A stretch of 64,000 nt of DNA from Narthecium ossifragum (Eukaryota > Streptophyta > Magnoliopsida > Dioscoreales > Nartheciaceae). Position 1 is the stretch's first letter. Every line of letters starts with the position of its first letter. Below the pieces are notes generated by a model that made no database searches, was not told the DNA's origin, and was given only the letters and a program-made list of their open reading frames with translations. The stretch covers positions 7,685,096-7,749,095 of the forward strand of contig OY986969.1 of NCBI GenBank assembly GCA_963920575.1, in the 5' to 3' direction. Position numbers and translations under genes: made by a program. Positions 15,483 to 59,641 of this stretch are shown piece after piece.

Positions 15483-15585
15483 CGATCCTTCCTCAACGAA
15501 GGATCGATCCTTCAAGACGATTCACAAGGCTTTCTAGCACGAAGAGGATCGATCCCTTAGCAAGAGAGGATCGATCCTTTGTGTG
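15483..15585. promoter_or_regulatory. GGATCGATCC palindrome array of LTR F
   Basis: Four to five GATCGATC-centred palindromes lie within 100 bp, directly upstream (on the minus strand) of TTATAAG at about 15473-15479. Spacing between neighbours is roughly 20-50 bp. Confidence 0.7.
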
Positions 15586-15793
15586 CTGAAAGCTAAACTT
15601 GGGCAAGAACTCAAGCCCAAGTCCGGATCTTTCGATCCCGGGTCCACCTAGCCATTCTAAACAAACACTAACACATACAAGGCCAGTGTGTGCACACGCG
15701 AGTGTGGAATAAACCAACAAGGTGCAATTTACCAAATTGCCCTTGCGGTCTATAACTAGCCACAGGGGTAGAGGGACAGGTCCTCACATCGGA

Positions 15794-16019
15794 TCTGGGG
15801 ATTTAGGAGATCATAGTGGTCGGATATATGGCGACCTCTTCCTCCAAGCACCACCGTCGCCGACCTCGTTGGATCCGTCATCTCCACCTCCCATCAGCTC
15901 GATCCAACTCGATGAATGGACTTCCCCCAGCCACCCACGACCTATCCTCCACCAGCGCCGACGACCGCCGGAACTTTCTGAGGCGCGCGAAAGCTTGTCT
16001 TTAGGACAGCTGGCAACCC
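15794..16019. other. GC-rich stretch without a recognised gene
   Basis: C-rich sequence with short open frames on both strands but no protein that I recognise. It is the right flank of the site into which LTR F inserted. Confidence 0.35.
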
Positions 16020-17760
16020 ATGTGTGATCGGTCACTCCTTGGAGCGATCGATCGAATCTGTGTCGGTTGTCTGGATAAGGACGCGGCTAACGTGTTCAGG
16101 TAAGGACGTGAACCGACCTAGTCCAACCGATTGGTTTTAGGACCGATCGATCGGACTCGAGCCTATAAGTAACCCGAGACCCCTCTGTTTTTCCGATTTT
16201 TTCTTCTCCTCTCCTCCTACCTTAGAAATTCTTGTTTAGAGCTTGATCTAATGGCTTGGGAAGCTTTCTAGGGGCTATGGGAAGAGATCTACACCCTCCT
16301 TGGATGGTTTGATTGGGAATCAAACGTGGATTAGCGTAGTTTGATAGGTTTCTTCATTAAACCTTAGATTAGGTGTTCTTCGTGGTTTTATTTGATTGTT
16401 CTTCAATTAAAATATGCTAGTTGATGGTTGGTAGCTTGATTATCACATGATTAAAGTTTGGTAGGATTTGCTTTTGATTTGATATGGATTTAAGCAAGTT
16501 TTCCTTAGGCTATTTTTCGGATTTCCTAGTTTAATTAGAATAGTGGTGTTCTAACATGATTTCCGAGCTGTATCTGAGTTTTTGTTCTGAATAAAAGTTG
16601 TATATCTATGAGTTATCTTTCATTCCCAACTGGTTTCATGATTTTTCGATTTACATACATTGTCTGGTGAATTAAATCGTATGTCTGTGCTGAAACAGGG
16701 CAGTCATCTTAATTAGTGTAATTAAGTGGGTTTTCGTTGTTAAATAGATTTGAGTTTTGGAGGGGATGATCTTAGTGATATTTAGGTGTGATCTGCAAAG
16801 TTTGGTTTGAATCCAACTTATTTTCAAGACGGAGTTTTATTGGGTTTATCAGATCTGAGATTTAACCGAAATTATAGATTTTCATCGATTTGCTTTTATC
16901 CGATCAATCCAACTTTTGGGTATGTGATTCAGGGTATGTCGTTTAGTGTGTATATAAAGTTTGATATCCATCGGACGGCTAGATTGAAAGATAGGATTTT
17001 TCGAGGTTTGTTGTAGAATAAACAGGCCTTAAGTTTGCCATAATCTTTGAATATAATACTATTATATTGCTTTTTGGCTAGTTAGCTGGGGCTGCTTCCC
17101 GTTGCTTGTTTCCTTTGTTAACTGGCTAGTAGCTGGTGGTGTTATCGCTGCAGCAGTTTTCCGACCTTACTTATCTGTTCATCACCCCGGGCCGACAGGG
17201 TGCCGAACCCAGACCATATTTATTATTGGCACATATGTTGCATGCTTATCTACTTTTCTATGTGTGTTCATGGCATGCATTTGATTGTGGATTAGATGCA
17301 TAAGGATAGGGCGTGGGTGATGGGTTGATCGTCGATCTGAGGCTTTCGGGTAACTCGGATTTAGCCTTAGGACCAGGGCTGGGTAGCTTGGTCCAGGTTT
17401 GAATGGTTGTATTCAGTCGAATTCAATGATAGGCCTATATGATTTGAACAAATGTTGATCGATGATTTAGAGGTTGTGTCGGCCTTGAGCCAGGTTCTGA
17501 GGTGTAGCTGGTGTTCGGTTCTCTTGTCTCTTGAGTAGAGGGTGTGCCTACTCAGCGGTGTTGGTTCCCGCCTAACAGTGCCGGTTTTCTGCTTGTGAGA
17601 TGGCAGTGTTGGATTCCTGCCTCGCTGAGGGTGACCCAATATGTGACCAGCTCGGCTAGAAGATCATGACTGGGGCACCTCAGGGACACGCGGTGGGGTT
17701 ATGGTGCTCCTGTGTACACCCAGGCTTTGCTTGAGAGCGACACTGTTGTGTTCCCTGTAC
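16020..17760 (+). mobile_element. truncated LTR G, relative of F/H/I
   Basis: Plus-strand sequence parallels H and I: a GATCGATC palindrome pair, a CCTATAAGTAACC TATA box at about 16162, a CT-rich leader, a GCAAAGTTT...ATCGATTTGC segment shared with I at 52617-52640, GTAGAATAAA shared with H, and GATGGGTTGATCG...CTCGGAT.TAGCC shared with I at 55750-55810. The first 200 bp of the family and everything after GTTCCCTG near 17755 are missing. No target duplication is therefore available. Confidence 0.65.
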
Positions 17761-17799
17761 TTCAAAGCTAATGCCTTTGTCATTGTATTTTAAGCTTTA

Positions 17800-18519: not shown

Positions 18520-18670
18520 GAATGCATTTGGGTGCTTGATGAAAATTGGGGTGCTATCAGAGAGAGGAAGAATAGAGAAGGAAATTGGTGTGCTTGATGA
18601 AATGCATTTGGGTGCTTAATATTGGTGTGCTATCAGAGAGAGGAGAGGGAATCTCTAATGGAATAGAGAA
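18520..18670. repeat. two-unit tandem repeat
   Basis: GAATGCATTTGGGTGCTTGA and GGTGCTATCAGAGAGAGG each occur twice about 75-85 bp apart. Confidence 0.6.
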
Positions 18671-21968: not shown

Positions 21969-21973
21969 AGCAT

Positions 21974-23418
21974 TGATGAATAAATTTTATATCTCGCAAG
22001 TATACGAATCGGTGCAATCAGTATAGTAGCAAGACGAGTATCGTACCCACAGAGATTTGTAGAGATTATTAGAGTAAAACGCTAAAGAACAGAAAAGAAA
22101 GAAAATATGGAAGGGAAAATAAGAAATATGAAGTCTCGAAGATAGATGATCTAATAACGAAATAAGGAAACGATGAAAATATGATGGATGAATACTAAGG
22201 TTCCGATTTCACCATAACATCCTCATTCTATGCATTGAATCAATCAAGTTTCAGTTTAATTCCAAGGGCTCGTTCTTCCGGTATGATGATCCGTTCGGCC
22301 GCGATCTTCACCAAGTACCCTCAATTAACCCTAGCTAATGAACCCATAACTAGGTGTTAATCAAGAATCCATTAAGCTCTGAAGAACAATTATGAACCAA
22401 GAATACTCTTAGCTTGAACCCGGCCTCGACATAAACTCATTCATTCATAGATCCTGCAAGATTAGGGAATGAACTCTCGCCCAATCTCACATAAAACAAT
22501 CTATAATACTCTTATTGGCCAGATAAAGGTATTTAAGATCTCAGTTATAATAATGAATGAAACAAGGAAAATAAACTGATAAAATAATCATGATCCAATA
22601 ACATAGAATGATTCAGTTAGGGCTACATTGGTACCTTAGAGAAGAAACTAGCCACTCATGTTCACCATGAGAGCAACAAAACTAATGGAGAAATAAAGAA
22701 GAAAATAAGAAAAGAAAACCAAGCCTGGAACCCTTCTCCTCGCCTCCAAACGCTGCCAAATAGTCCTCCAAAAGCTCCCTTTTGATAACCCTAAGTATCC
22801 TATTTATAGGCCTCAACTCGGGTTAGATCTAAGTCCATTATACGCTCTCTGTTGATCTGACGGTCGACCGTCAACTGTTCATAATACTTCGGAAGAGCAA
22901 CGGTCGATCTCTGGATCGACCCTGAGAAGTGTTTTCTTCAACAGAGGCTGACGGTCGATGCCACGAATGATGTCACGGTCAACCGTGGGAAGTTTTACAT
23001 GTGACGGTCGATGCGATGGTCGTTCGGAGGAATTTTCGAGCGTAACGGTCGACCGTGAGATTCTGGCGGTCGACCGTCACTATTCATCCAGCCTGCGCAC
23101 TGTTACGAAAAATGTTGTAACTTTCCGTAAAAAACTCGGAATCACGAACCGTAAAATTCTTCTGAATCTAGACTTCAAGAGCTTTCCAACCATATATGGG
23201 ACATCATCTGGTTCTTCATGAACAGGTACAGTTTAATCTTTCAAGTTGATCCATGTAATCTTTTCAGCTTCTTTGCTCATTTTTCCTGCATTTTCCAAAC
23301 AACTTTGTGAAGCAACATATAGATATAAAAATAGTAATAAATATGTTGATTAAGGATAATAATCTAGCAATTGAGATGATTATAAGGCTATTTAGAGTGC
23401 ACTTTCATGCACTCATCA
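21974..23418 (-). repeat. 3' LTR of element A (1445 bp)
   Basis: On the minus strand TGATGAGTGC...TTCATCA. It matches 30001-31465 nearly base for base. A TATA box (minus CTATAAATAGG) lies at about 22797-22808, with the palindrome array at 22855-23085 just upstream in LTR direction. Confidence 0.95.
22855..23085. promoter_or_regulatory. TCGA palindrome array in 3' LTR of element A
   Basis: About seven sites, perfect or degraded, of the ACGGTCGACCGT type: intact at 22860-22871, with degraded forms (ACGGTCAACCGT, ACGGTCGATGC) further on and two more good copies near 23045-23080. The array begins about 50 bp upstream of the LTR TATA box. Confidence 0.75.
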
Positions 23419-24593
23419 CACCCCCCAACCAGCTTATTGCTAGTCTCTAGCAATTTTAAACGCATAAAATATATTAAGCACACCAACGGTTTAAGGATGT
23501 AGACAAGCATCATAAAAGTTCTGCCTTATCAAGTCAATAATGTTGTACACCATACAGAGCACTAAAACTTCTTATACTCATACACATACTACCAACATAT
23601 GAAATCAACTTCTACACTTCAAATATGCTAATCACTATCCAGAAGAACACATGTGACGTGATAAATAAATGTTACGTACAGAAGCAACTTCTACTCACCA
23701 TTAGTCCAAACACGCTACTATTTTCATGACCAATCATCCAACCCTCGCACTTTAAGTACAACATGCTTTTTTTTTTCTTTTTCAACTATCAGACAGTTTG
23801 CCATTTTACGCGAGCACTCTCCGCTTCTTGAGGCGCAGAGACCCGGTTACTTAACAAAACACTGAGTAGTTTTTTTTTTTTTTTTTTTAGCTATTAGTGG
23901 CTCTACCATTTTACGCGAGCTCCCCGCTTCCTGAGGCAAGAACACCCGGTTACTCAGTAGATCACCTAATAAGTGTTAAGGCACAGCTTAATCAAGCTCC
24001 AGAACTTTTTCTGTTTTTTTCTCTGCATGCAATACTCAACACTAGCTAATGCTGAAATCATGGTCTAGATTGACAATAGCATGCTCATTCCTTTGGTGGG
24101 TATAATTACCACTGCACAGAACGTGTTCGTGTGTGACTCACATAATGTTCTACCTTCAGGTTATCACACATGCAATCAATATATAGGTAAATCCATATGA
24201 ATACCGCATGTATAATACGCATAAAAATTTTAACTCATGTACAATTTAACACTATTATACCCACAAGGTAATATGAATAAGGTCATGAATGTCTACACCC
24301 CACAACCTGAAATTAACATTGTCTTCAATGTGTGCATTTAAATATGTAGGAGGTGGCTATCCAAAAATTTCTAGAGAAAGAAGAAACAAGATACTGTAAA
24401 TAAGAAAGAGGTCACCTGATAGAATAGCGAACATCTCCTCAAGGATCCTCAGGGTGGCTGAAATCCTAAACAAAAACAAAAGAGAAAACATAAACCTGAA
24501 AACTGAAACTGAAACTTAAAAACTGGTTACCTTGGTGGGTTGCCTCCCACCCAGCGCTTTATTTAACGTCTAGGCAAGACGTACTGCAAAGCC
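23419..24593 (-). other. non-coding 3' internal region of element A
   Basis: The polypurine tract (minus GGTTGGGGGGTG, 23419-23430) borders the LTR. Between it and pol are two related blocks, 23798-23855 and 23900-23957, each with TTTTACGCGAGC, CCGCTTC(T/C)TGAGGC and ACCCGGTTACT, separated by poly-T. The same pair is present in element B (42943-43090). There is no envelope-like ORF. Confidence 0.7.
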
Positions 24594-29976: not shown

Positions 29977-29994
29977 TCCCCGGCAACGGCGCCA
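29977..29994 (-). other. primer-binding site of element A (Asp-tRNA type)
   Basis: On the minus strand TGGCGCCGTTGCCGGGGA begins six bases after the 5' LTR. This is the primer site of Athila-type elements, complementary to the 3' end of tRNA-Asp. Confidence 0.85.
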
Positions 29995-30000
29995 AAAACT

Positions 30001-31465
30001 TGATGAATAAATTTTATATCTCGCAAGTATACGAATCGGTGCAATCAGTATAGTAGCAAGACGAGTATCGTACCCACAGAGATTTGTAGAGATTATTAAA
30101 GTAAAACGCTAAAGAACAGAAAAGAAAGAAAATATGGAAGGGAAAATAAGAAATATGAAGTCTCGAAGATAGATGATCTAATAACGAAATAAGAAAACGA
30201 TGAAAATATGATGGATGAATACTAAGGTTCCGATTTCACCATAACATCCTGATTCTATGCATTGAATCAATCAAGTTTCAGTTTAATTCCAAGGGCTCGT
30301 TCTTCCTGTATGATGATCCATTCGGCCGCGGTCTTCACCAAGTACCCTCAATTAACCCTAGCTAATGAACCCATAACTAAGTGTTAATCAAGAATCCATT
30401 AAGCTCTGAAGAACAATTATGAACCAAGAATACTCTTAGCTTGAACCCGGCCTCGACATAAACTCATTCATTCATAGATACTGCAAGATTAGGGAATGAA
30501 TTCTCGCCCAATCTCACATAAAACAATCTATAATACTCTTATTGGCCAGATAAAGGTATTTAAGATCTCAGTTATAATAATGAATGAAACAAGGAAAATA
30601 AACTGATAAAATAATCATGATCCAATAACATAGAATGATTCAGTTAGGGCTACATCGGTACCTTAGAGAAGAAACTAGCCACTCATGTTCACCATGTGGG
30701 CAACAAAACTAATGGAGAAATAAAGAAGAAAATAAGAAAAGAAAACCAAGCCTGGAACCCTTCTCCTCGCCTCCAAACGCTGCCAAAAAGTCCTCCAAAA
30801 GCTCCCTTTTGATAACCCTAAGTATCCTATTTATAGGCCTCAACTCGGGTTAGATCTAAGTCCATTATACGCTCTCTGCTGATCTGGTGGTCGACCGTGA
30901 GATCTCACGGTCGACCGTCAACTGTTCATAATACTTCGGAAGAGCAACGGTCGATCTTCGGATCGACCCTGAGAAGTGTTTTCTTCAACAGAGGCTGACG
31001 GTCGATGCCACGGATGATGCCACGGTCGACCATGGGAAGTTTTGCATGTGACGGTCGATGCGACTGTCGTTCAGGGGAATTTTCGAGCGCGACGGTCGAC
31101 CGTGAGATTCTGGCGGTCGACCGTCACTATTCATCCAGCCTGCGCACTGGTACGAAAAATGTTGTAACTTTCCATAAAAAACTCGGAATCACGAACCGTA
31201 AAATTCTTCTGAATCTAGACTTCAAGAGCTTTCCAACCATATATGGCACATCATCTGGTTCTTCATGAACAGGTACAGTTTAATCTTTCAAGTTGATCCA
31301 TGTAATCTTTTCAGCTTCTTTGCTCATTTTTCCAGCATTTTCCAAACAACTTTGTGAAGCAACATATAGATATAAAAATAGTAATAAATATGTTGATTAA
31401 GGATAATAATCTAGCAATTGAGATGATTATAAGGCTATTTAGAGTGCACTTTCATGCACTCATCA
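30001..31465 (-). repeat. 5' LTR of element A (1465 bp)
   Basis: Same ends as the 3' LTR and 20 bp longer because of one additional palindrome unit near 30888-30907. The TATA box lies at about 30828-30838 (minus CTATAAATAGG), with the palindrome array at 30885-31130 directly upstream. Confidence 0.95.
30885..31130. promoter_or_regulatory. TCGA palindrome array in 5' LTR of element A
   Basis: Eight or so GGTCGACC-type sites, with GTGGTCGACCGTGAGATCTC (20 bp) present here and absent from the 3' LTR. Later copies are partly decayed (ACGGTCGATGC, ACGGTCGACCATGG). Confidence 0.75.
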
Positions 31466-32101
31466 AGCATCACAAGCATTATAGCATGCATCAATATCAT
31501 TAGAAAGATAAGCATCACAAGCATCGTCATTATTAACAAGAGGAATAGAATCATTTGCATAATCCTCATTCTCATAATACGAATCAACCATGTGGGCTAG
31601 TTGTTCTATTTGTGTCTTTATTTTGGATATAGATTGAGCATAGGAGGCTCGATCTCTTCCAAGTTTAGCTATACTGGCATCTATGTTCTCAAACTTCACA
31701 TTCATGTTTGCATTCATGGTTGTAAGTGTGCTCATGAGCATGTCAGACTTTGTGTTAGAGGTCACTTGAGGGGCAGGAGGTGATGCATGTGAAGGATATT
31801 GTTGTCCAAAACTAGGTTCAAAATTTTGGGTCGGTGTTTCTATGTTCCATGATTGAAGGTTAGGAGGTCGATAACCTTCGAATTGCCAATTAGGGTATGT
31901 TTGGTTTCTAAAATTCGGATTATAAGTGTATGAATGTGAATTATATGCCGAATTATAAGTGGGTCCATAACCAAAAGGCAAATCATCATTCGACATGGCA
32001 CCCGGTGGCATATAAAAATTGGCCATGCATGTAAAATCATATATCAGAAAGAGAAAAAGAAAACAGAAGATTTGGATGAGAGGAGAAAATCCGGAAAACA
32101 A
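31466..32101 (-). pseudogene. N-terminal half of element D gag-like ORF
   Basis: 212 codons end exactly at the element A target site and continue in phase at 21968. After a short hydrophobic leader the frame has MANFYMPPGAMSNDD, then a Tyr/Asn-rich segment (SAYNSHSYTYNPNFRNQ) and a region with NIDASIAKLGRD...QIEQLAHM. The last resembles the coiled region that follows the capsid in Athila-type gag (compare [12 protein letters not shown] in element A). I infer a reduced gag-like protein of a non-autonomous element. No zinc knuckle is present. The true start may be the internal Met at 32026. Confidence 0.6.
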
Positions 32102-32374: not shown

Positions 32375-33250
32375 TGTTCGCTTGCAAACGTTGTCGTTAA
32401 ACGTTGCTAACCTCAATCAAAATATAATCCTTATTCTATCACTATCCTACAGGGTAAACAAGTGGTGAAGTCCAGAGTCGATCCACAGGGAAAACGTTGG
32501 AAAGTAAAATCAATTCTCGAAACTGATTCCTAAGTGGAGTAATCAAAAGGTTGGTTGAATTATCTAAAAATTATCTAAGAAAATAAGTAAAGTGATCGGG
32601 ATTTGAACCAAGTTATGAATTACCTAGGGATTACTCAATCCACCCTAGTCACCTTTAATCTTCTTTAGTTATCCTCTTGTTCCCTTCTCTCAACATTATG
32701 GATCATACGGCGACAAGCTCAGATGAATCCCTAAAATAAGATTTATGTTTCTAACGAAATAGCCTATCTTTCTTGGCATTGGTTTTCCTCAATCCTATGA
32801 TTACTTTAAGTTATACTGCTCCTAATGACCTTGGCACAACCTATCCTAGCATAACATAGTCTATCTCAAAAGCAAACCATAAATCACATGAAAACCATCT
32901 CATAAATCTGTATAAACAATCACAGAAAGCTTATACGACTGAAAATACTTCAAAGAAACTATATTCTTTCAAATCTCTAATCATTAAAACCATATTTATG
33001 AGATAATGTTGAGAAGAAGTTTACAATAATCAAACAAAAAAAAATCAAAAGTTACACTAGGGTTTCATGATATCCTTAAGTTTAGAATTAGTTACTCATC
33101 TTCTGGAAAAGATCCATAGGTGTTGGGAAGGAAGCCGTCGATCCCCGTGGAAAGATCTCCATCTTCAAAACCCTAGCCTTCTCCTCCAAAAGTGGTCCAA
33201 AAGATGATGATTTTTGGCTGGAATAACCCCTTTATATATTAGAAACCCTC
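32375..33250 (-). repeat. 5' LTR of element D, part 1 (interrupted by element B)
   Basis: Starts at the primer site with TGTTCGCTTGC on the plus strand (minus end GCAAGCGAACA). A minus-strand TATATAAAGG box lies at 33230-33240. The LTR breaks at CCCTC (33246-33250), the target duplication of element B, and resumes at 44454. Confidence 0.7.
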
Positions 33251-34897
33251 TGATAAGTGCATGAAAGTGCACTCTGAACAACCTTAAAACCATCTCAATT
33301 GCTATATCTTCATCCTTAATCAACTTCTTTAGCACTATTTTTATAGTATATGTTACTTCACATAGTTGCTTGGAAAATGCAGGAAATTGGAGCTGAAAGA
33401 AGCTGAAAAGATTATATGGGTCAAATTCAAATATTACATTGTATCTTTCTAAGAAGAACCAGATGATGTGCCATATACCATTGGAAAGCTCTTGAAGTCT
33501 ACTTTCTGGAGAATTTTACGGTTCATGATTTCGAGTTACGTAGAGGAAGTTACAACATTTTTCGTACAAGTGCGCAGTGCTGAATGAATAGTGACGGTCG
33601 ACCGTCAAATCTCACGGTCGACCGTCGCGCTCAAAAATCCTCACGGTCGACCCTCAAATCCTCACGGTCGACCGTGGAGCCCGAAAATCCTCACGGTCGA
33701 CCGTCAGATACTCACGGTTGACCGTCGCATCGACCGTGACATCGACCGTCAGCCTCTGTCAAGGAAAATACTTCGTAGGGTCGATGCAAAGATCGACCGC
33801 AGCTTGTCAAAATTAATTGTGCACCTCACGGTCGACCGTCAGGGTCTCACGGTCGATGGCCAGATCAGCTAGGGGCCTATAACGGGTTTAAACTTAACCC
33901 GAGTTTGCTAATCTTTGGACCCTATAAATAGGAAAGTTAGGGTAAGCCAAGGGGGACTTCTTGGACGTTTTTGGAGGCTCTTTCTGGACGGTTTCTGAAG
34001 GGAAGAAGATAAAGACATCTCCATCCATGGCCGAGTAATCCGCGAGCATGGCGGACGGATGATCTAACGAGGATTAGGGTTTCTTCTCCAACGATGGTTC
34101 ATGTTTTTAATCTTCATTGTTAAACTCTTTTCTATGTATTGGATCTTCAAATATTATTTTCAGATTATAGATTTCTATGTGGATGATTAATATTATGAAT
34201 CCAGTCATGCTTCTTTCATGATCTTATAATCCCATAGTCTTCTCTTTTGATTCTCCTACTGAGTCTTGCGAGACCTTTGCTATGCATTGCCCGTAGTGAC
34301 AACTGGTATTGTGTATTCTTAGGGATCTGGTAAGACAAGGTTGGGGCTCTATCCCGAGAAATCTTTGCTAAGCATTGCCGATTATGAGAGTTTGTATTGT
34401 GTATTCTTAGAGATCCGGTTAGAAAGAGTTAGGGCTTTGTCCCGATGAACTTTTGCTACGCGTTGCCTGTAGTGACAGCCGGTATCGTGTATTCTTAGGT
34501 TTGGTTGGATGAAGTTAGAACTATAAAAAGGAAGAACTAATCGTAGGAGGAGACATTTATATATTTTGTTAGGTTTATAGTTCCATATCTTCCGGTTAAG
34601 GTGATTGGGATGTGAATCCCTTAACTGAGTATCATATGAACCATTGAGAAGAGAAGAACCTAAATCCGAGTGAAGTGATTCCTGAAGCCTAGCCTCATTC
34701 AAATCTTGATTTCTTTCGTTAACTTTATCTTATCATTACATCTTCCATCTATTTTCTTAACTTTTACGCTCTTGATTGTTTTCGATATATTGTTATTTGT
34801 GTTTCTGGATCTTTCCTGCTTGTCTCTCTGTGGGTTCAACCTCTCTTATGATGTACTGCACCGCGACCGCTGTGCGTGACACATTTGAGCGACATCA
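33251..34897 (+). repeat. 5' LTR of element B (1647 bp)
   Basis: Contains, in order: a U3 block shared with elements A, C and J (GAAGAACCAGATGATGTGCC...GAATTTTACGGTTCATGATT), the palindrome array 33593-33860, a TATA box at about 33922-33930, and a three-fold repeat of about 70-110 bp at about 34270-34505 (GCTATGCATTGCC...GTGTATTCTTAG). Confidence 0.93.
33593..33860. promoter_or_regulatory. ACGGTCGACCGT palindrome array, 5' LTR of element B
   Basis: Six 12-bp palindromes (some with one change) occur in the first 125 bp, with start-to-start spacing alternating near 20-21 and 29 bp. They are followed by half-decayed copies (GCATCGACCGTGACATCGACCGT) and two more at 33835-33860. The array ends about 60 bp before CCTATAAATAGG. 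Confidence 0.8.
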
Positions 34898-34902
34898 AAA
34901 AT

Positions 34903-34920
34903 TGGCGCCGTTGCCGGGGA
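34903..34920 (+). other. primer-binding site of element B
   Basis: TGGCGCCGTTGCCGGGGA follows the 5' LTR by five bases; Asp-tRNA type as in element A. Confidence 0.88.
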
Positions 34921-39132: not shown

Positions 39133-40935
39133 TGATGAGTGCATGAAAGTGCACTCTGAACAGTATTATAACCATCTCAATTGCTAGATTATTATCCTTA
39201 ATCAGCATCTTTATTACTATTTTTATATCTATATGTTGCTTCACATGGTTGTTTGGAAAATGCAGGAAATTGGAGCTAAAAGAAGCTGAAAAGAGTATAT
39301 AGAGCAACTTCACAAATTAATCTGTACCTGCTCGTGAAGAACCAGATGATGTACCATATATAGCTGGAAAGCTCTTGAAGTCTAGATTCTGGGGAATTTT
39401 ACGGTTCATGATTCCGAGTTTCCTAGAGGAAGTTACGGCAATTTTAGTACCGATGGCGCAGTCTGGATGGCAGAAAGGAAAATAAGCTGGAAGTCCGAGC
39501 GATCAGCCGATCGATCGGACCTCGCAGAATCGTGACAGAACATGTGTTTTTTAGCTGAACATGGTTCGATCGATCCCTCCATTGCTCCTATGGGGTCCGA
39601 TCGATCCGACACCAATGGTCCGATCGATCGGACTCGGAAAAAGCCAAAAACAACGGATTTTTACTCAACCGATCGATCCAACACTCATAATTCGATCGAT
39701 CGGACTTGGGAATTAAAGGGTGACAGAACATATGCTTTTTAGAGGAGCAGAGTTCGATCGATCCGTCCATCGATCGAACTCGGGAAGAGCCAGAGACGAA
39801 GGATTTTTACGAAATCGATTGATCCGACTCCCTTAGTCCGATCGATCGGACTCGGGCGTAAATAGAAGATTGGAGATTTCAAGAGACCGATCGATCCAAC
39901 ATCCCGAGAAGGATCGATCGGACTTGCCCAGTGACGAAAATCAACGGTTTTGATTAATCCGAGTTTACTAATTCTTGGACCCTATAAATAGGAAACTTAG
40001 GGCTAATCAAGGGGGACTTCTTGGATGTTTTTGGAGGCTTTTTCTGGACGTTCTCCAAGGGAAGAAGATGGAGGAATCTCCATCTATGGCCGAGTAATCC
40101 ACGGGCATGGCGGACGGATGATCTAGCGAGGACTAGGGTTTCTTCTCCAACAATGGCTCATAGTTTTTAATCTTTATTGTTAAATTCTTCTTATGTATTG
40201 GATTTTCACAGATTGCTTTGTGGTTAAACATTATTATAAATCTAGTCATGCTTCTTTTATGATATTGTGATCCCATAGTTATCTCCTTTGATTCTCCTAC
40301 CGAGTCTCGTGAGACCTTTGCTATGCATTGCCCGTAGTGACAGCTGGTATTGTGTATTCTTAGGGATCTGGTTAGATAAGGTTGGGGCTCTATACCGTGA
40401 GATCTTTGCTATGCATTGCCGATTGTGAGAGTTGGTATTGTGTATTCTTAGAGATCCAGTTAGAGTTAGGGCTTTGTCCCGATGAACTTTTGCTGTGCGT
40501 TGCCTGTAGTGACAGCCGGTATTGTGTATTCTTAGGTTTGGTTGGATGAAGTTAGCACTATAAAAAGGAAGAACCAATCGTAGGAAGAGACATTTATATA
40601 TTTTATCAGATTCATAATTCTATATCTTCCGGTTAAGGTGATTGGGATGTGAATCCCTTAACTGAGTATCATATGAACCATTGAGAAGAGAAGAACCTAA
40701 ATCCGAGTGAAGTGATTCCTGAAGCCTAGCCTTATCAAAAGCCTGATATCTTTAGTTAACATTACATTATCATTAATCCTTTGATCTAATTTAATTTAGT
40801 TAGCTTTCTTCATTGTTTTCAATTCATTGTTATTTGTATTTCTGGATCTTTCATGCTTGTCTCTCTGTGGGATTCGACCTCTCTTATGCTGTACTGCACC
40901 GCGACCGCTGTGCGTGACACATTTGAGCGACATCA
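39133..40935 (+). mobile_element. solo LTR C (1803 bp) inside element B pol
   Basis: Begins TGATGAGTGC, ends GCGACATCA, and is flanked by perfect GAGAA copies at 39128-39132 and 40936-40940. Its backbone is the B-type LTR (same U3 block, TATA box at about 39983-39992, same three-fold 70-bp repeat at about 40310-40545), but the palindrome array at 39495-39925 has a different core (GATCGATCGGAC instead of ACGGTCGACCGT). Removing it together with one GAGAA restores the pol reading frame. Confidence 0.93.
39495..39925. promoter_or_regulatory. CGATCGATCGG palindrome array of solo LTR C
   Basis: More than ten GATCGATC-centred sites, mostly as pairs TCGATCGATCC...CGATCGATCGGAC separated by 25-30 bp, with ACTCGGG or ACTTGGG often after the second site. 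The array ends about 60 bp before the TATA box. Confidence 0.8.
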
Positions 40936-40940
40936 GAGAA

Positions 40941-43481: not shown

Positions 43482-44448
43482 TGATAAGTGCATGAAAGTG
43501 CACTCTGAACAACCTTAAAACCATCTCAATTGCTATATCTTCACTCTTAATCAATTTCTTTAGCACTATTTTTATAGTATATGTTACTTCACATAGTTGC
43601 TTGGAAAATGCAGGAAATTGGAGCTGAAAGAAGCTGAAAAGGTTATATGGGTCAACTTCAAAGATTAACCTGTATCTTTCTAAGAAGAACCAGATGATGT
43701 TCCATATACTATTGGAAAGCGCCTCAAGTCTACTTTCTGGAGAATTTTACGGTTCATGATTCCGAGTTACGTAGGGGAAGTTACACCATTTTTCGTGGCA
43801 ATGTGCAGTGCTGAATGAATAGTGACAGTCGACCGTCAGATCTCACGGTCGACCGTCGCGCTCAAAAATCCTCACGGTCGACCGTCAAATCCTCACAGTC
43901 GACTGTGGAGCCCGAAAATCCTCACGGTCGACCGTCGCATCGACCGTGGCATCGACCGTCAGCCTCTGTCAAGGAAAATACTTCGCAGGGTCGATGCGAA
44001 GATCGACCGCAGATTGTTAAAATTAATTGTGCACCTCACGGTCGACCGTCAGGGTCTCACGGTCGACCGCCAGATCTGCCAGGGGCGTATAACGGGTTTA
44101 AACTTAACCCGAGTTTGCTAATCTTTGGACCCTATAAATAGGAAAGCTAGGGTAAGCCAAGGGGGACTTCTTGGACGTTTTTGGAGGCTCTTTCTGGACG
44201 GTTTCTGAAGGGAAGAAGATGAAGACATCTCCATCCATGGCCAAGTAATCTGCGGGTTCGACCTCTCTTATGCTGTTATCTTATCATTACATCTTCCATC
44301 TATTTTCTTAACTTTTACGCTCTTGATTGTTTTCGATATATTGTTATCTGTGTTTCTGGATCTTTCCTGCTTGTCTCTCTGTGAGTTCGACCTCTCTTAT
44401 GTTGTACTGCACCACGACCGCTGTGCGTGACACATTTGAGCGACATCA
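43482..44448 (+). repeat. 3' LTR of element B (967 bp, internally rearranged)
   Basis: Ends match the 5' LTR, but 680 bp net are missing between GTAATCTGC (about 44252) and TTATCTTATCATTAC (about 44275). At the junction 22 bp copied from further downstream in the LTR (GGTTCGACCTCTCTTATGC) are inserted. The palindrome array at 43824-44070 is present; the TATA box at about 44131-44140 is retained. Confidence 0.9.
43824..44070. promoter_or_regulatory. ACGGTCGACCGT palindrome array, 3' LTR of element B
   Basis: Same order of units as the 5' LTR array but one unit fewer, and with several decayed sites such as ACAGTCGACTGT, in which the outer CG pairs have become CA and TG. Confidence 0.75.
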
Positions 44449-44453
44449 CCCTC

Positions 44454-44944: not shown

Positions 44945-45625
44945 TTAGTGACTTATCTGGAACTCCCTGTTCATGAGATGGGAGAATGGTTTGCAACGGC
45001 CCGCTAAGTTGGAGATGAATTTTCGAATATACGCCAATCGACCTTGAAGACTCTTCAACTCATGGAGGTTCCGTGGAGGAGACATCCCTAAGATGGCCTT
45101 GATCTTAAAAGGGTCGACCTCGATTCCCCGTTTGCAGACTATGAAGCCAAGGAGCATTCCTGATGTTACTCCAAATGCACATTTCATGGTATTCATCTTT
45201 AGGTTATGTTGCCTTTGTCTCTCGAAGTCTTCGATTAAGTGTTTGACTTGATCTTGTCTATTTTTTGTCTTTACTACCAGATCATCAATATAGCATTTCA
45301 CGATATCATGGAGGAGATCGTTGAAGATAGCTGTCATAGCACTCTGGTAGTTAGCTCCAGCATTTTTTAACCCAAAGGGCATCACTGTATAGCAAAACAT
45401 TCCTTTTGGGGTGCAGAAGGAAGTAAGCTCTTCATCATCAGGATTCATTTTGATTTGATTATAACCTGAGTACCCGTCCACGAAAGAGAGGATCTCATGT
45501 CCAGTCATCACGTCTACGATGAGCTCGGCTATGGGTAAGGGAAAGTCATCTTTCGGATAGGCTTTGTTTAGATCTCTAAAGTCTATGCAAAGTCTAAGTT
45601 GTCCATTCTTCTTTTTTATGGGCAT
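44945..45625 (-). pseudogene. reverse transcriptase of element E (truncated)
   Basis: Motifs in order: KKNGQLRLCIDFRDLNKAYP, FPLPIAELIVD, DGYSGYNQIKM, VMPFGLKNAGANYQ, the catalytic YIDDLVVK, then HNLKMNTMKCAFGVTSG and LLGFIVCKRGIEVDP. It ends in CKPFSHLMN where the RNase H connection should start. The upstream frame (45626-45765) holds a few more pol codons in another phase. Confidence 0.88.
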
Positions 45626-45765
45626 GATATTGGCTAGCCACCTGGGCTATTTGACCTCCTAAATGAAATTTGCTTTAATAAGCTTGTCTACCTTCGTGAT
45701 GATCTTGGGAATCAACTCTGGTAAAAAATGTCTTTAAGCTTGCTTGATTGGGCAGACGCTTTCCT

Positions 45766-50144: not shown

Positions 50145-50149
50145 GATAC

Positions 50150-51157
50150 TGTTCGCCCTAATATTGTTTCGATGATGTCAATATATATTTGATGATAAAA
50201 CATTGGTTTAATATTATTATCCCTTAATTTGGAAAGTAATAAAATCATATTTAATGTGTTTTTGTACTGACGGTCGATGCTACGGACGATGCATGGATCG
50301 ACCGTGGGGGTATGGCGGTTGATGCAAGGAAAGATGTTCTTGGGTAAATAGGCTGACGGTCGATGTGACGATCGATGGACCAATCGACCATGGGCTATGT
50401 GACCTGGCTCAGAGGTGCGACGGTCGAACGAGGTATCGACCCTGAGAGGCGGTTTTCGCAACAGACCCCGACGGACGATGTCACGGTCGATGCGACGGTC
50501 AACCGTGAAGCTTGACGGACGATGTGTGGATCGACCGTGGCTCAAGAAGAACCTGGCGGATGATGTCACGGACGATGCGACGGTCGACCGCCAGCCCAGA
50601 AAAGAGCCGTTGCCGGAGTAGGAAATAGTCGTTGGGAGGCTATTTGGAGGGGTTTGAAGCTCAGCTATAAAAGGAAAAGTGCAGCAAACTTGCCAAGGAC
50701 TTAGAGAGAGCTAAGGGATTATTGTAATCATATTCTAGCAAGTTTCTATCTCTTATTTGTGAGTTAAACCTTTGTAAAACTACTTCAAGTGTGAAGTAGA
50801 CTTTGAGAGAAATATCCTAGAGAGATATTAGAGAGATTGTAAGGTTGTCAAGCACCCGTAAGCTTGGTGGATAAGTTGCCAAGCACCCGGAAGCTTGGTG
50901 GACAACTTGTAAGAGGTCCTGCAAGTAGTGGAACCTTAAGGAGGCCCTTGAGTGAAGTGAACGTAGGCAAGGTTGGCCGAACCACTATAAAAATTCTGAT
51001 GCAATCTCTTTAACTCTCATCTCATATCTCTTGCTTAAATATATTATCTGCTCTTATCTTTATCAAGCATATGATTTAATTAGACTCCTCCTATTTCGAT
51101 TTCCTTAATTGATTTTATCGTATAAAGCCTAAGATAAGCCCTCCTCTTAGAGCTTCA
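50150..51157 (+). mobile_element. solo LTR L (1008 bp) with GATAC target duplication
   Basis: Begins TGTTCGCC and ends GCTTCA; perfect GATAC copies at 50145-50149 and 51158-51162. The array of TCGA palindromes at 50270-50595 lies upstream of a TATA box (CTATAAAAGG, about 50664). The R/U5 part (TTGTAAAACTACTTCAAGTGTGAAGTAGAC and GGTTGGCCGAACCACTATAAAAATTC) resembles plant copia LTRs, so this is probably a Ty1/copia solo LTR in plus orientation. It interrupts the decayed element E. Confidence 0.85.
50270..50595. promoter_or_regulatory. mixed ACGGTCGA/GATCGACCG array of solo LTR L
   Basis: Over ten sites of ACGGTCGATG, GGATCGACCGTGG, ACGATCGATGG and one intact GACGGTCGACCGCC, most with one decayed arm. 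The array ends about 75 bp before the TATA box. Confidence 0.7.
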
Positions 51158-51849: not shown

Positions 51850-52711
51850 CTGACTGTGAGGACCCGTTTCTCTGACCTGGCTCGACCGCGTGGGTCGACG
51901 GCCATTTTCCCTTGATTTGGTTTCGCGTCGGGTGCGATCAGGTTGATCGTATTGCTCTTGTGACCCAGGGGCAATTTGGTAAATTACGCCCGGTGGTCGA
52001 TTTCACACCCGCGCAACGCACACAAGCCTTGTATTGATGTATATGATTGATTAGTATCTTAAGGGTGCCTTCGATCGAAAGATCGGAGCTCGATCGGGAA
52101 AGATCAAATCGGACGGTCGAGATCAGATCCTGATCTCTACAAATACATGATTTCTTATCTCAATAAATACCTAACTTCTCTCTCTTTCCTTTCTTTTTCT
52201 TCCTCTGCTGTCGTTGTCTCCCTCCCTCGCTCTCTCTCCTACCGGCTGAGCTAGGGCTTGGAGTCGCGATCTTTGAGGAGCGGATCTTGGCGATCGAGCT
52301 TGGGGAATACGTGGAGGAGCTGCCCTACTTGATCAAGTAGGTGTTTCTACCCCGATTGTATGATTGGGTTCTCCTAAAATAGGTTTATTGTGTTTTTGAT
52401 GTAGGAATACTTGGTAGATTGTTGTGTAGCTTAATACATGGGTGTTATAGCATGCTTAGAGTATCTCTACCTCTTGGTTTTCGTATTTTATCGAACGATT
52501 CTCGTATTATCGCCGTTTTGTCAGTTTTCAACCGTTTAGACCTAGATTTGAGATTTAATCATCAAAATTGTGCTTTCTTCATATCAACAGTTTTCCCATC
52601 ATTTGTTACGCGTGTCTGCAAAGTTTCATCGATTTGCAATGAGCTTTGATAGATCAAATCCAACAAATTGGATTTCTGGCACTGTTCGTAGGAACTATGC
52701 ACTAGGCTTGA

Positions 52712-52939
52712 CAGTCGACTGTTGGATCGACCATAAGGTGTTCGCACGCTTATTTTTGGTCTCACAGTCGATCGTCGCATCGACCGTGGCTCACGGTCGA
52801 CTGTCGGATCGCCCGTCGCATCGACCGTGAGATTCTATTCCCTTTTTAGCTTCCCAGGGTCGATGTTCCAATCGACCGTGGCCTTGTGCTCTTTCCTATT
52901 TTTGGTCTCACGACCGACCGTTGGATCGACCGTCGCATC
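52712..52939. promoter_or_regulatory. TCGA palindrome array of LTR I, interrupted by LTR H
   Basis: Sites such as ACAGTCGACTGTTGGATCG, CAGTCGATCGTCGCATCGACC and GGTCGACTGTCGGATCG occur about every 20-30 bp. The array resumes at 55309 with AACCGTGGCTCACGGCCGACC, so H landed inside it. Confidence 0.75.
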
Positions 52940-53152
52940 TGTGATGACCCGTTCTTCTATTTCTGTGGCTCGTCGTTGACCGCAAGGGCAATTTGGTAAA
53001 TTGCGCCTTGTTGGTTTGTTTCACACCCGCGTGTGCACACACAGGCCTTGTTTGGGTGTATGTGTTTGAATAGGATGGTTAGGTGGACCCCGGGATCGAG
53101 AGATCCGAAATTTGGCTTGAACCGGGCCCAATTTCCCTTCCCAGCGCAGGAC

Positions 53153-53255
53153 GGATCGATCCGAACTCCACCTCGGATCGATCCGACTCGCACTAGGGAA
53201 GTGTTGCCGCCAGTGGGACTCGGATCGATCCGAGGTGGAGTTCGGATCGATCCGA
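53153..53255. promoter_or_regulatory. U3 GGATCGATCC array of LTR H
   Basis: Four CGGATCGATCCGA sites arranged as two pairs (26-29 bp apart), ending about 20 bp before TATAAG. Confidence 0.75.
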
Positions 53256-53635
53256 ATCGCACTGAGGCGTCTGTATAAGAACGGATGCCGGGCTTCTTCT
53301 CTTCTTTTTTCCCGATCTCGTCGCGTCCGAGCTCGTTCCCAGCGATTTCTTGGAAGGAGATTGGAAGATCCAAGGCTCTGCTTCGTGGATTGAAGCAGCT
53401 CTTGTGAGGTAGGGTTCCTACCTATGGCATTCGTTGGGTTTGTCTCCTGTTCATCGTCGTTCTCGCCGGATTTCCGTGGTGTTTTGTGTAGATCTTCTTG
53501 CATAAGCGGTGTTTTCCGGTTTTGAAGCCATGAGTAGCTTCGTGAGCTTCGGCACTTCCTACTCACCAAGTTTGGTGATGTTTGGCTCAGCTTTTCGGCC
53601 GTGTCGCCGTCGGAAGCTGGCCGGAGGGCCGGGTG

Positions 53636-53992
53636 GGATCGATCCAAAAGTGTTGGATCAATCCGAGCCTGGGAGTCGGATCGATCCAAGGTGATAGTTG
53701 GATCGATCCCACTTGTCCCAGGAACAGTGCCTGGGGGTGGCACTGCGCGGTTTTCCTTGGTTTTCTTAGCCGGATCGATCCAAGGGATTGTTGGATCGAT
53801 CCCGAGGTTGGTCGGATCGATCCGAATGCCGAGTTGGATCGATCGACCTTGTTTGTTTTCTTTGTTGTTTCCTAGCCGGATCGATCCAAGGACGAGTTGG
53901 ATCGATCCAAGCGCTAGTTGGATCGATCCAAGCGCTAGTTGGATCGATCCAAGGCCAGTTCGGATCGATCCAAAGGTGTTGGATTGATCCAA
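53636..53992. repeat. 21-bp-phased GGATCGATCC array downstream of the LTR H promoter
   Basis: About fourteen GGATCGATCC sites (a few decayed to GGATCAATCC or GGATTGATCC). In the right part the unit GGATCGATCCAAGCGCTAGTT and close variants repeats with a strict 21-bp period. Long open frames over it on both strands are artefacts of this repetition. Confidence 0.85.
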
Positions 53993-56639: not shown

Positions 56640-57496
56640 TTTTATTACTAAAGTGCCCTTCCAAGATCCCCATCCTATCTTCCCTTCCCAATGTCAGTTC
56701 ATATTCACGAAGACTCAAGTTGGCGGACGAACAGGAGCGACCCGAGCTAATACGGGATGTAGTCAAAGAGGATCTTCTCGGACACGGATCGCTTGGGAGG
56801 AGATCGCTTGGGAGCTTGGGAGGCTAGCGGCATGGATCATCATCGGACTCGTCCCAGGCAGCGATTGGCAAGGCGACAGAGGAGCTTGGGAGGAGTTGGT
56901 ATGTAACTCGAGGGAGGAGATAGAAAGTAACTCGAGCGGAGGAGATGAGGGTGGGCGGTAGATGAGTTTGGGCGGATCTAGCCGGAGGCGACGAAGGAGA
57001 TTGGGGAGGGTGGCGGATGAGCTCGGGGAGGTGGCGGAGGAGATGAGGGCGGGCGGCAGAGGAGATGGAAAGTAACTCAAGCAGAGGAGAGGGAAAGTAA
57101 CTCGATCAGAGGAGCTCGGGGAGATGAGGGCGAGTGGCAACGGCATGGATCGGCATGGAAAGTAACTCGACATGGAAAGTAACTCGGGGAGGTGGCGGAG
57201 GAGAGCTCGGGGAGATGAGGGCAAGGGCGGGTGGCAGCGGCATGGATTGGCATGGATCGCAGAGGAGCTTGGGAGGAACTCGAGCATGGAAAGTAACTCG
57301 GCATGGAAAGTAACTCGGGGAGGTGGCGGACGAGCTCGTGGAGGTGGCGGAGGAGATGAGGGTGGGTGGCGGTGGAGATGGAAGATGGAAACTAACTCGA
57401 GCGGAGGAGATGAGGGCGGGCGACAGAGGAGCTTGGGCGGATCTGGCCGGAGGCGGCGAAGGAGATTGGGGAGGGGTGGCGGACGAGCTCGGACAG
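56640..57496. repeat. GC/purine-rich degenerate repeat region K, left part
   Basis: On the plus strand GGAGGAGATGAGGGCGGGCGGC, GGAAAGTAACTCG and GAGCTTGGG words recur with irregular spacing over 700 bp. The 256-codon Pro/Ser-rich minus frame (56763-57533) is a translation of these repeats. The same words resume at 59647 to about 59800, on the far side of solo LTR J. Origin unknown. Confidence 0.6.
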
Positions 57497-57501
57497 GTGG
57501 C

Positions 57502-59641
57502 TGATAAGACGTGAAAAGTGCACAAATCACCATTTTAACTGGGTCTCGTTAGTCTTCGAGCAATGCTATTTTGATTGTCTTCTCCCCATTTCAGGTATTA
57601 GGACCCTCAGCGAAGATTAGATCAAGTTTAGTGCTAAAATGAACAAATAAAGAATCTGCTAGGAGCAAAGAAGTCAAAGGAGCAAAGGCGGGCCTTCTTT
57701 GACATCAAAACTGTACCTGCTCAGGAAGAACCAAATGATGTGCCATATATGGTTGGAACGTTCTTGAAGTCTAGTTTCTATAGAATTTTATGGTTCGTGA
57801 TTTTGAGTTTCCTAGAGGAAGTTATGGCATTTTTAGTACTAATGGCGCTGTCTGATGACAAAAGAGTAAATAAACAAACAGAAGGATGGATCATCCTCCC
57901 CTAAAGGATCGATCCTTACACTGTAGCAGAGGCAACAAAGAGACATATTTTACATGATCGATCATTCCCTTTTGAATGATCGATCATTCCCTTTTGAATG
58001 ATCGATCATTCCCTTTTGAATGATCGATCATACTCGGGCGCAACCAAATTTTTGGGTTCAAAGGATCGATCTTCACCCCTAAATGATCGATCCTTTGATA
58101 TCAGTTAAGTAAAATCAAAGGCCTAAATTTAAAGGATCGATCATCACTCTCCTTAATGATCGATCATTTATGCACGACAACAATGACAAAGAGCACCAAT
58201 TCAAAGGATCGATCTTTCTTCATGGAATAATCGATTATCCACAGGGCGTGATCAATCACACAAGGGAAGGATCGATCATCTCCTATGTGAATGATCGATC
58301 CTTTACAGACGTTCCTAGCAATTGAAAACAAAGGATCGATCTTCCTACATGGAATGATCGATCATTTGATTGCCAGTGAAGAAAATCAACGGCCAAGATC
58401 TAATCCGGAAGATGGATGTTCCTAAGCTATAAATAAGCATATTCTAGGGTTTTTGGGGGTTGCTCTCTGGTTCCTCTCTTTGGGGGGCTCTCTAGACTCT
58501 CTCTTGGCTGCTTGGAGGCCAAGGAGAGGGAGCACTCTTTATTAGTTTCTTTTTTCTCTTTTTTAACTTTTCTTCTTAAAATGTTTTGGGAGGAAATCCA
58601 TGGCGGAAGAGCTTCATCAACCTTCATCTATGGATCAAACCCTAAAGATAAGTAGCTAAACTTTTTACCATGGGATTCTTATGATGTAACTAGGGTTTCT
58701 ATTAGGGATTCCTAAGATTTAGGGCTTGTATACCTCTTTGAATAGTTTGTATGGATTGATCTTAACTTCTTTATGAACTTGGTTTGATTTTATTATTAGT
58801 GGATGAATGATTTGTTCCTTTATGCCCTAGATCTAGATCTTGAGCATGTAAGGGCTTGAGATTAGAGATTCTCATCAAAACATTCATGCTAGAACCATGA
58901 ATGTGAGGATTTCCTTCTCGAGATTAAGAGTCGTGTGATGCTAGGACCATTACACATAATGTTAGAACCATTATGACCAACTCTTAATCCGTTATTCATC
59001 TTAATTCAAGATTAGGGATTTCATAAGTGCTAGTACCACTATGCTGGTGCTAGAACCACTATGTTAACTTCTAATTCTTGATACATTCTATTTGGCGACC
59101 TCAAGGTGCTAGAACCATCTTGATCTTACACCTAAATTCATATTATACTATTTTCTCGCGATGAATTCATGCTTATCAGAGGATTCATTAGCGGTGATCA
59201 TAACTAATCATTAGGTCACTGACTTTTAGATAATTGCTCTCACCGACAAGGGATCCTAACCGGAACTTATTGAGTGATAGGGAGAACTAGTCATTCATCT
59301 ATCAACCATTAGAAAAACCGTTCAGTTTGGTTAGCTCGTTCTAATCTTAAGAAGATCTGGTAGAATCATAGTTATTGATTAAGAATTCCCTAGTACCTTT
59401 TCTCGTATTTGTCAATCCTTTAGTATAAAGTTGGTTTAATTTCAATTCTGAATTTTTTCTTAACTTATTGGTAGGAATACTTAGATTAAGTTTAGTAGTT
59501 TAATTCCTTTTCAATGCATTCCCTGCGGATTCGACTCGGACTCACTGCTAGCTACCCCTAAAGTAGTTAGTCAGTAGTTTGATTATAAATTTGTAATTTT
59601 GAGCAGACTTGTTAAGCCACGACACTTTTCAAGCGCTATGA
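57502..59641 (+). mobile_element. solo LTR J (2140 bp), related to the Athila-type LTRs
   Basis: Begins TGATAAGACG. Its likely end is CGCTATGA at 59641 (one base from TATCA). Flanks GTGGC (57497-57501) and GTGGT (59642-59646) agree at four of five bases, and joining them recreates the host repeat. The U3 block GAAGAACCAAATGATGTGCC...GTTTCCTAGAGGAAGTTATGG at about 57725-57830 matches LTRs B and C. A GATCGATC array (57895-58370) and a CTATAAATAAG box (about 58427) follow. The tail GGATTCGACTCGGACTCACT is also as in related LTRs. Confidence 0.75.
57895..58370. promoter_or_regulatory. GATCGATC array of solo LTR J
   Basis: About fifteen sites of GGATCGATC or TGATCGATCA type. Near 57955-58030 the 22-bp unit TGATCGATCATTCCCTTTT plus GAA is repeated three times in tandem, with a fourth site after the last unit. 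The array ends about 60 bp before the TATA box. Confidence 0.8.

What the first reader, a model, noticed from the sequence alone, without database searches (positions are those of the whole stretch)
15483..58370. Arrays of TCGA-centred palindromes sit directly 5' of the TATA box in LTRs of several unrelated retrotransposon families
Seen: arrays of ACGGTCGACCGT, GGATCGATCC or GATCGATCGG lie 10-80 bp upstream of TATA in LTRs A (both), B (both), C, F, G, H, J and L. These include Athila-type, Tekay/Del-like and probable copia LTRs. Established: LTR U3 regions hold promoter and enhancer repeats (for example the Tnt1/Tto1 U3 repeats). Inference: a shared host factor, probably a dimer recognising TCGA-centred palindromes, drives or represses many families here, and the families have converged on or exchanged the same site type. 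I know of no described array of this kind.
Basis: partly seen in the sequence, partly recalled or inferred. Interest (0 to 1): 0.9.

Follow-up and report, generated by a model that had tools for sequence, protein, structure and literature searches.

The report
Swappable palindrome arrays in LTR promoters
In this plant genome, jumping genes of more than one family carry tandem arrays of short TCGA-centred mirror-symmetric DNA sites, often at a nearly fixed distance in front of the promoter, and the families seem to trade these arrays as ready-made blocks, which points to a shared control protein that remains to be found.

Summary
In a 379-Mb plant assembly, pairs of GATCGATC 12-42 bp apart occur at 94,953 places (140 for the reversed control). 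GATCGATC lies 50-80 bp 5' of TATAAATA at 7,973 places, but 3' of it at 70; for GGTCGACC the figures are 671 and 10. In 95 of the 100 places listed the gap is 63-65 bp. Of 100 listed pairs, 77 have centres 21-23 bp apart.

In the Athila-like LTRs the array is a cassette: same-class arrays align (22 of 22 comparisons), different-class arrays do not (43 of 44), whatever the flanking modules.

'No described array of this kind' is wrong: Sirevirus 'RM boxes' (PMC2829016) are palindrome arrays just 5' of TATA, and the Vitis one, CGGTCGACCG, equals one class here. New are the Ty3 hosts, the scale, the TATA register and the class cassettes.

Best reading: upstream activating arrays for an unknown host dimeric factor.

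The parts
15480..15578 (-). Array of four GATCGATC units (mostly GGATCGATCC class), centres 22, 45 and 22 bp apart, in the U3 of a Tekay-like LTR; TATAAG directly 3' on the minus strand
16045..16154 (.). Two palindromes, CGATCGATCG and CCGATCGATCGG, just before CCTATAAGTA; LTR family not assigned
21969..23420 (-). 3' LTR of Athila-like element E1; GGTCGACC-class array at 22858-23076, TATAAATA (minus) at 22801
29986..31468 (-). 5' LTR of element E1; array 30889-31123, TATAAATA (minus) at 30828; tRNA-Asp-type primer-binding site at 29994 (minus)
33249..34904 (+). 5' LTR of Athila-like element E2; GGTCGACC-class array 33592-33860, TATAAATA at 33923; Asp-type primer-binding site at 34903
39133..40936 (+). 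Solo LTR inserted in E2; CCGATCGATCGG-class array 39507-39920, TATAAATA at 39983
43482..44450 (+). 3' LTR of E2; GGTCGACC-class array 43829-44069, TATAAATA at 44133
50340..50610 (-). Degenerate GGTCGACC-class array in a third repeat family (relatives L009 and, in part, L007) beside a Tat-like pol at 44945-45646; that it is an LTR, and its strand, are inferred
52711..52830 (+). GGTCGACC-class array in a Tekay-like LTR whose parts lie at 51855-52939 and 55441-56557, split by a later insertion
53152..53256 (+). GGATCGATCC-class array of four units (22, 47 and 22 bp apart) in the inserted Tekay-like LTR; TATAAG at 53274
53636..53971 (+). Second GGATCGATCC-class array of the same LTR, downstream of its TATA
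57904..58366 (+). Array mainly of TGATCGATCA class in an Athila-like LTR (shared U3 block at 57708-57873); TATAAATA at 58428

Best explanation
The arrays are upstream activating sequences of LTR promoters. Each 10-16 bp site is a pair of inverted half-sites around TCGA, read by a host DNA-binding protein that works as a dimer. Sites come mostly in pairs about two helical turns apart (21-23 bp), so bound dimers would sit on one face of the helix. The last site is held about 58 or 68 bp 5' of TATA, one helical turn apart, so that the complex can reach the basal machinery. The half-site exists in classes (GATC with A, C, G or T outside it, and CGGTC). A whole array of one class is a cassette that LTR families swap, most likely by template switching during reverse transcription of co-packaged RNAs, while the U3 block before it and the TATA-R-U5 part after it stay. 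Shown here: arrays, spacing, distance to TATA, 5' bias, cassette mosaicism in the Athila-like LTRs, spacer homology of one class between families. Inferred: protein binding, dimer, activation, template switching, advantage of switching class.
For: Sidedness against TATA: 7,973 vs 70 and 671 vs 10. Register: gap 63-65 bp in 95 of 100 listed places, while 11 intervals picked by eye are only 43% identical ungapped and 57% gapped, shuffled 45%. GGTCGACC class on C1: gap 64 in 21, 52-53 in 24, 61 in 2 and 72-74 in 10 of 57 listed places. Site spacing: 22 bp in 54 and 19-23 bp in 88 of 100 listed pairs. The two halves share their majority class in 15 of 17 arrays, 4.5 expected, three by a tie; among perfect palindromes, 225 of 249 within-array pairs of units are alike, 49 expected. 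Cassettes: 22 of 22 same-class array comparisons align (two of them are the two LTRs of one element), 43 of 44 different-class comparisons do not, while 5' blocks stay 76-99% and 3' block types cut across class. GGTCGACC cassette of Athila-like E2 and E1 against Tekay-like L003, and of E2 against L007: 26 of 40, 26 of 46 and 48 of 69 spacer matches; each score exceeds 200 spacer shuffles.
Against: No protein, expression or binding data. Within an array the two halves of one unit match no better than the array's composition predicts (83 seen, 83.0 expected at the first flank base; 89 and 92.1 at the second), so it is half-sites, not each palindrome, that are kept. Longer spacings (49-51 bp) are not whole helical turns, and the best period over nearest spacings is 9.4, not 10.5 bp. 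Tekay-like LTRs have an array downstream of TATA. Class purity is not universal: AGATCGATCA/TGATCGATCT, a mixed form, is at 11,768 places, more than TGATCGATCA at 6,428. Outside the Athila-like set, three different-class array pairs share 35-47 bp matches. CpGs in arrays of inserted copies decay like others (10 of 268 vs 19 of 518), so there is no sign of protection after insertion. Listed places are the first ones of the listing, on C1, and many are relatives, so the fixed register is partly shared ancestry.
Confidence: 0.58

Rival explanations
1. Structure, not a protein site: the palindromes fold in RNA or as DNA cruciforms, feeding small-RNA production or RNA dimerisation, as argued for maize Sirevirus LTR palindromes.
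For: Palindrome-rich LTR regions of maize Sireviruses are small-RNA hotspots (passages of PMC5311732 and PMC10760457). The core of every site here is self-complementary.
Against: A structure should keep complementarity inside a unit or between neighbours, but neither clearly exceeds what the array's own composition gives (within unit 83 vs 83.0; outer 46 vs 43.8 and inner 38 vs 37.2 of 58 pairs). It gives no reason for a fixed distance to TATA or 114-fold sidedness.
Confidence: 0.14
2. Binding sites of a host repressor or heterochromatin factor; the arrays are handles by which the host silences these LTRs.
For: Sites sit where a promoter repressor would act; array CpGs decay as in the rest of the LTR, as expected if methylated.
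Against: Elements under repression should lose the sites; instead arrays are multiplied, kept in register with TATA and replaced by another full array. This is argument, not test.
Confidence: 0.13
3. An element-encoded factor reads the arrays and counters silencing, as VANC proteins do for VANDAL transposons; array class and protein co-evolve.
For: Array turnover by tandem repeats with variant types resembles VANC motif evolution (passages of PMC5735166).
Against: No long reading frame between pol and the 3' LTR of E1 or E2. An element whose long pol frame is 95% identical to that of E1 (L029, 1371 aligned residues) carries a different array class. VANC21 motifs are described as arrayed in one orientation, not as palindromes.
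Confidence: 0.05
4. Neutral tandem-repeat turnover in U3 that happens to involve palindromes and hitchhikes with successful families.
For: Arrays are repetitive and related within classes.
Against: All four outer bases recur with both halves alike at array level, register with TATA holds across intervals only 43% identical ungapped, and the palindrome CGGTCGACCG was reported in LTRs of a Vitis Sirevirus (PMC2829016).
Confidence: 0.1

Closest known systems
Sirevirus RM boxes (Bousios et al. 2010, PMC2829016: sections 9 and 19 and passages incl. the abstract seen)
   Same: Palindromes in many copies (8-32 per element), mostly in the upper half of the LTR, shortly 5' of a conserved TATA. The Vitis RM CGGTCGACCG equals the GGTCGACC class here; the Tnd-1 RM ACAATCGATTGT is TCGA-centred. 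Function unproven there too.
   Different: Reported as specific to Sireviruses (Ty1/copia) and absent from classic elements; here arrays are in Ty3 LTRs (Athila-like, Tekay-like). The GATC-type classes lack the CGG-CCG core. Cassette exchange, 22-bp pairs and a fixed TATA register are not in the parts I saw.
Maize Sirevirus LTR palindromes as small-RNA hotspots (Bousios et al. 2016; not held; seen only as cited in passages of PMC5311732 and PMC10760457)
   Same: Palindrome-rich, highly variable cis-region of the LTR; the second paper finds the same maize palindrome in Helitrons too.
   Different: Their motif has a spacer (CACCGGACNNNGTCCGGTG); no small-RNA data were available for this genome here.
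VANDAL/VANC anti-silencing motif arrays (PMC5735166, passages)
   Same: Short motif types multiplied by tandem repeats and replaced quickly among related elements.
   Different: VANDAL elements with their own VANC gene, motifs in one orientation; no such gene was seen between pol and 3' LTR here.
Tnt1/Tto1 U3 repeats and ONSEN heat-shock elements (recalled, no call)
   Same: Repeated transcription-factor sites in U3 of plant LTRs.
   Different: Each in one element family, other sequences.

Membership tests
Sirevirus RM-box arrays | Palindromic repeat in the LTR, at least eight copies per element | tested here: inconclusive
   Palindromic repeats in every one of 12 Athila-like LTR copies, but 8 or more units of 8 bp or longer in only 7 of the 12 (3 to 15 per copy)
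Sirevirus RM-box arrays | Array a short distance 5' of a TATA box | tested here: met
   Tekay-like LTRs also have an array 3' of TATA
Sirevirus RM-box arrays | CGG-CCG core | tested here: inconclusive
   Met by the CGGTCGACCG class, not by the NGATCGATCN classes; the paper's own Tnd-1 box lacks it too
Sirevirus RM-box arrays | Host element is a Ty1/copia Sirevirus | tested here: not met
   E1: RT, RNase H, then integrase, i.e. Ty3 order, and Asp-type PBS; Tekay-like: Retrotrans_gag
Sirevirus RM-box arrays | Array defines a CpG island | not tested
   No CpG-island call was made
Athila lineage (elements E1, E2) | tRNA-Asp primer-binding site after the 5' LTR | tested here: met
   TGGCGCCGTTGCC at 29994 (-) and 34903 (+); that this marks Athila/Tat is recalled
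Athila lineage (elements E1, E2) | Placement in a reverse-transcriptase tree | not tested
   Name rests on PBS and recall
Tekay/Del-like chromovirus | Ty3 gag after an iMet PBS and a long LTR | tested here: met
   L018: PBS at 4828, PF03732 in 5246-6133; LTR about 2.4-2.6 kb in L018 and L001/L002; that this marks Tekay/Del is recalled
Tekay/Del-like chromovirus | Integrase chromodomain | not tested
   Not searched
VANC-type anti-silencing system | Element-encoded DNA-binding protein | tested here: not met
   No long ORF between pol and the 3' LTR of E1 or E2; other parts not searched exhaustively

The most novel reading that the evidence does not exclude
LTR families of both retrotransposon superfamilies draw on one common stock of interchangeable promoter cassettes, each written in one of about five half-site classes around TCGA. 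Each class is read by its own member of an old, angiosperm-wide family of dimeric host factors (the CGGTCGACCG class recurs in a Vitis Sirevirus), and retrotransposons change control by swapping the cassette rather than by point mutation.
Probability: 0.28. Interest if true: 0.85.

Novelty: new variant of a known kind. Interest (0 to 1): 0.64.

Why it matters
If right, one host factor or factor family controls thousands of retrotransposon promoters in a plant, and the sites to use as bait are known exactly. The cassette pattern would show how LTR promoters change control in blocks across families, and the identity with the Vitis Sirevirus motif would make an old unanswered question (what, if anything, binds Sirevirus RM boxes) testable with well-defined sequences in Ty3 and Ty1 elements alike.

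Tried and rejected
Array-encoded spurious proteins as a way to find the arrays in other species: the frame over window 53021-54052 gave no homologue at E 0.001. Literature search with the palindromes as words: in the rows listed (20 of 182, 9 of 9, 10 of 71) only PMC2829016 and PMC10760457 concern LTR palindromes; of the plant-genome papers I looked into two, where the word is a Hi-C-type junction and a primer.

Sequencing artefact: GATCGATC is also the DpnII ligation junction of proximity-ligation libraries. Rejected, because the words stand in ordered arrays at a fixed distance from TATA, in LTR relatives, and the GGTCGACC class, which is no such junction, behaves alike.

Helical phasing of all spacings: not supported as a whole. 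Protection of array CpGs: not seen. Palindrome pairing inside units or between neighbours beyond array composition: not seen; the raw flank symmetry of 59%, 63%, 42% and 48% at the first four flank positions is thus an array-level property, and the reading that outer flanks mirror each other is superseded. Copia: L026 has a copia gag and an iMet PBS near an array, but the array also has a TATA 69 bp away on the other strand and the copia side matches repeats that lack the array, so I do not count it. A spacer word ACAGAG/CTCTGT is in 13 of 27 arrays (17 seen, 2.6 expected), but many arrays are relatives, so it stays a lead. My notebook says 'each array uses ONE flank base' and counts L026 as copia; both were later weakened as told here.

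Counts dropped or partial: one search used 57 of the 100 listed places (those on C1). One search used 11 strings picked by eye from 100 to be diverse. One search used 12 LTR copies, one search used 23 arrays, one search used 27, one search used 15, one search used the 17 arrays with three or more GATCGATC. Genome counts for AGATCGATCT, GGATCGATCC, CGATCGATCG and plain GATCGATC were asked for and never answered.
Full report
What was checked. The window holds 55 TCGA-centred perfect palindromes of 10 bp or more among 129 of all centres, and 39 among 57 of 12 bp or more. The window lies in a 379.4-Mb assembly whose 13 long contigs add to 375.3 Mb. A PPR frame finds relatives of like length at 65-71% identity in monocots and other angiosperms and none closer in the 120 rows listed, so the plant is not identified.

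Is it more than chance, and is it outside the window? Yes. ACGGTCGACCGT is at 12,621 places, 10 for the same word read backwards. Two GATCGATC with a gap of 4-34 bp are at 94,953 places, 140 for the reversed pattern. In 15 stretches of 10 kb placed at round coordinates, 69 TCGA palindromes stand against 9.2 expected, 60 of them clustered. ATAT and TATA centres are more frequent in that sample (102, 91). Of 15 arrays of three or more units in these stretches, I assign 11 to two LTR families (6 Athila-like, 5 Tekay-like; two of the five, L017 2519-2745 and L023 1562-1764, by their place downstream of a Tekay-like U3) and leave 4 unassigned.

Place in the promoter. GATCGATC stands 50-80 bp 5' of TATAAATA at 7,973 places and 3' of it, at the same distance, at 70. 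GGTCGACC: 671 and 10. The 3'-side counts are near their reversed controls, 34 and 19. Among the first 100 places listed the gap is 63-65 bp in 95. For GGTCGACC, 57 listed places on C1 show 64 (21), 52-53 (24), 61 (2) and 72-74 (10): two registers about one helical turn apart, the 72-74 class being mostly the unit 20 bp further upstream. Eleven intervals picked for diversity share only 43% of bases ungapped, or 57% with gaps against 45% after shuffling, yet keep 63-65 bp. Shared descent contributes, so this is a strong hint of a spacing rule rather than a proof.

Internal order. Of 100 listed pairs, 54 have centres 22 bp apart and 88 lie in 19-23 bp, out of an allowed 12-42. Many arrays alternate 22 with 42-51 bp. 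Periodicity at 10.5 bp is not the best fit over all spacings, so only the 22-bp pairs can be called in phase.

What is kept: half-sites. The base outside GATCGATC may be any of the four. Both halves favour the same one in 15 of 17 arrays (three by a tie), 4.5 expected; but inside an array the two halves of a unit agree no more than its composition predicts, 83 against 83.0. The same holds for neighbouring units, 46 against 43.8 and 38 against 37.2. This is what a protein reading half-sites would leave, and not what a hairpin or cruciform would leave. Class purity is high among perfect palindromes in the sample (225 of 249 unit pairs, 49 expected) but not a law: the mixed form AGATCGATCA/TGATCGATCT is at 11,768 places, TGATCGATCA at 6,428.

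Cassettes. Twelve Athila-like LTR copies share a U3 block (76-99% over 113-341 bp) before the array. After the array come four types of TATA-R-U5 part that align with each other over at most 123 bp. Array class cuts across these: GGTCGACC with two types, CCGATCGATCGG with three, TGATCGATCA with two. Same-class arrays align in 22 of 22 comparisons (71-94%; two are the LTR pairs of one element), different-class arrays in 1 of 44, over 27 bp. In a wider set of 23 arrays three different-class pairs share 35-47 bp. So E1 and L029, with 95% identical pol frames, have unlike arrays between matching flanks. Between families, the GGTCGACC arrays of Athila-like E2 and E1 match the Tekay-like L003, and E2 matches L007 (linked by partial matches to the third repeat family), in spacers too: 26 of 40, 26 of 46 and 48 of 69; each score tops 200 spacer shuffles. 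Exchange explains this better than convergence. Template switching in mixed particles is the likeliest route, by inference.

Families. E1 has RT, RNase H and integrase matches in Ty3 order, E2 a Retrotrans_gag match, both an Asp-type primer-binding site; calling them Athila is recall. Tekay-like LTRs start TGTGAGGGCCC in L001 and L003 and run about 2.4-2.6 kb; in L018 the LTR is followed by an iMet site and a Ty3 gag. A third repeat family lies at window 50149-51157 beside a Tat-like pol. Copia is not shown: the array of L026 may belong to an unassigned LTR on the other strand.

After insertion. In four LTR pairs, CpG transitions hit arrays and other sequence alike, 10 of 268 and 19 of 518. 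Single copies are thus not visibly protected; selection, if any, acts on active lineages.

Compared with what is known. Bousios et al. 2010 (PMC2829016; sections 9 and 19 and passages seen) describe RM boxes in Sirevirus LTRs: palindromic, many copies, shortly before TATA. The Vitis box is CGGTCGACCG and the Tnd-1 box ACAATCGATTGT. [quoted passage not shown] The present arrays are the same kind of thing in Ty3 LTRs. A later maize study, seen only as cited, ties such palindromes to small RNAs. In the rows listed by nine answered paper searches I saw no report of such arrays in Athila or Tekay elements; the lists were cut, most entries were not opened, and subscription papers are mostly not held.

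Mechanism and verdict. The register before TATA, strong sidedness, half-site conservation and replacement by equivalent arrays fit an upstream activating array for a host dimeric factor. Activation is inferred: repression is not excluded by any test here.

Noticed in passing
29333-29438 (+) and 35659-35765 (-): Both Athila-like elements match Rfam snoR71 (RF00097, 45 and 53 bits) on the strand opposite to the element, in or near the gag region; either the family was seeded from such elements or a snoRNA-like piece is there.
   Followed up: no
51855-52939 and 55441-56557: One Tekay-like LTR split by a later insertion that carries another Tekay-like LTR with a different palindrome class.
   Followed up: partly
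53274-53640; L003 1077-1440: Tekay-like LTRs have an array downstream of the promoter, after a GTAGG...CTAC stretch that looks like a splice-donor context; a 5'UTR intron with its own array is possible.
   Followed up: no
interval between array and TATA, listing: Many listed intervals keep a stretch like CAGATCTAATCCGA between array and TATA, a possible second promoter element; not counted.
   Followed up: no
L026 5195-5474: One array is flanked by TATA-like boxes pointing away from it on both sides, 68 and 69 bp off; either a divergent promoter or two abutting LTRs.
   Followed up: partly
27 arrays: Spacer word ACAGAG/CTCTGT in 13 of 27 arrays, 17 copies against 2.6 expected.
   Followed up: no
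whole genome: GATCGATC equals the DpnII ligation junction of proximity-ligation libraries, so tools that trim reads at this word would cut true sequence in this genome at very many places.
   Followed up: no
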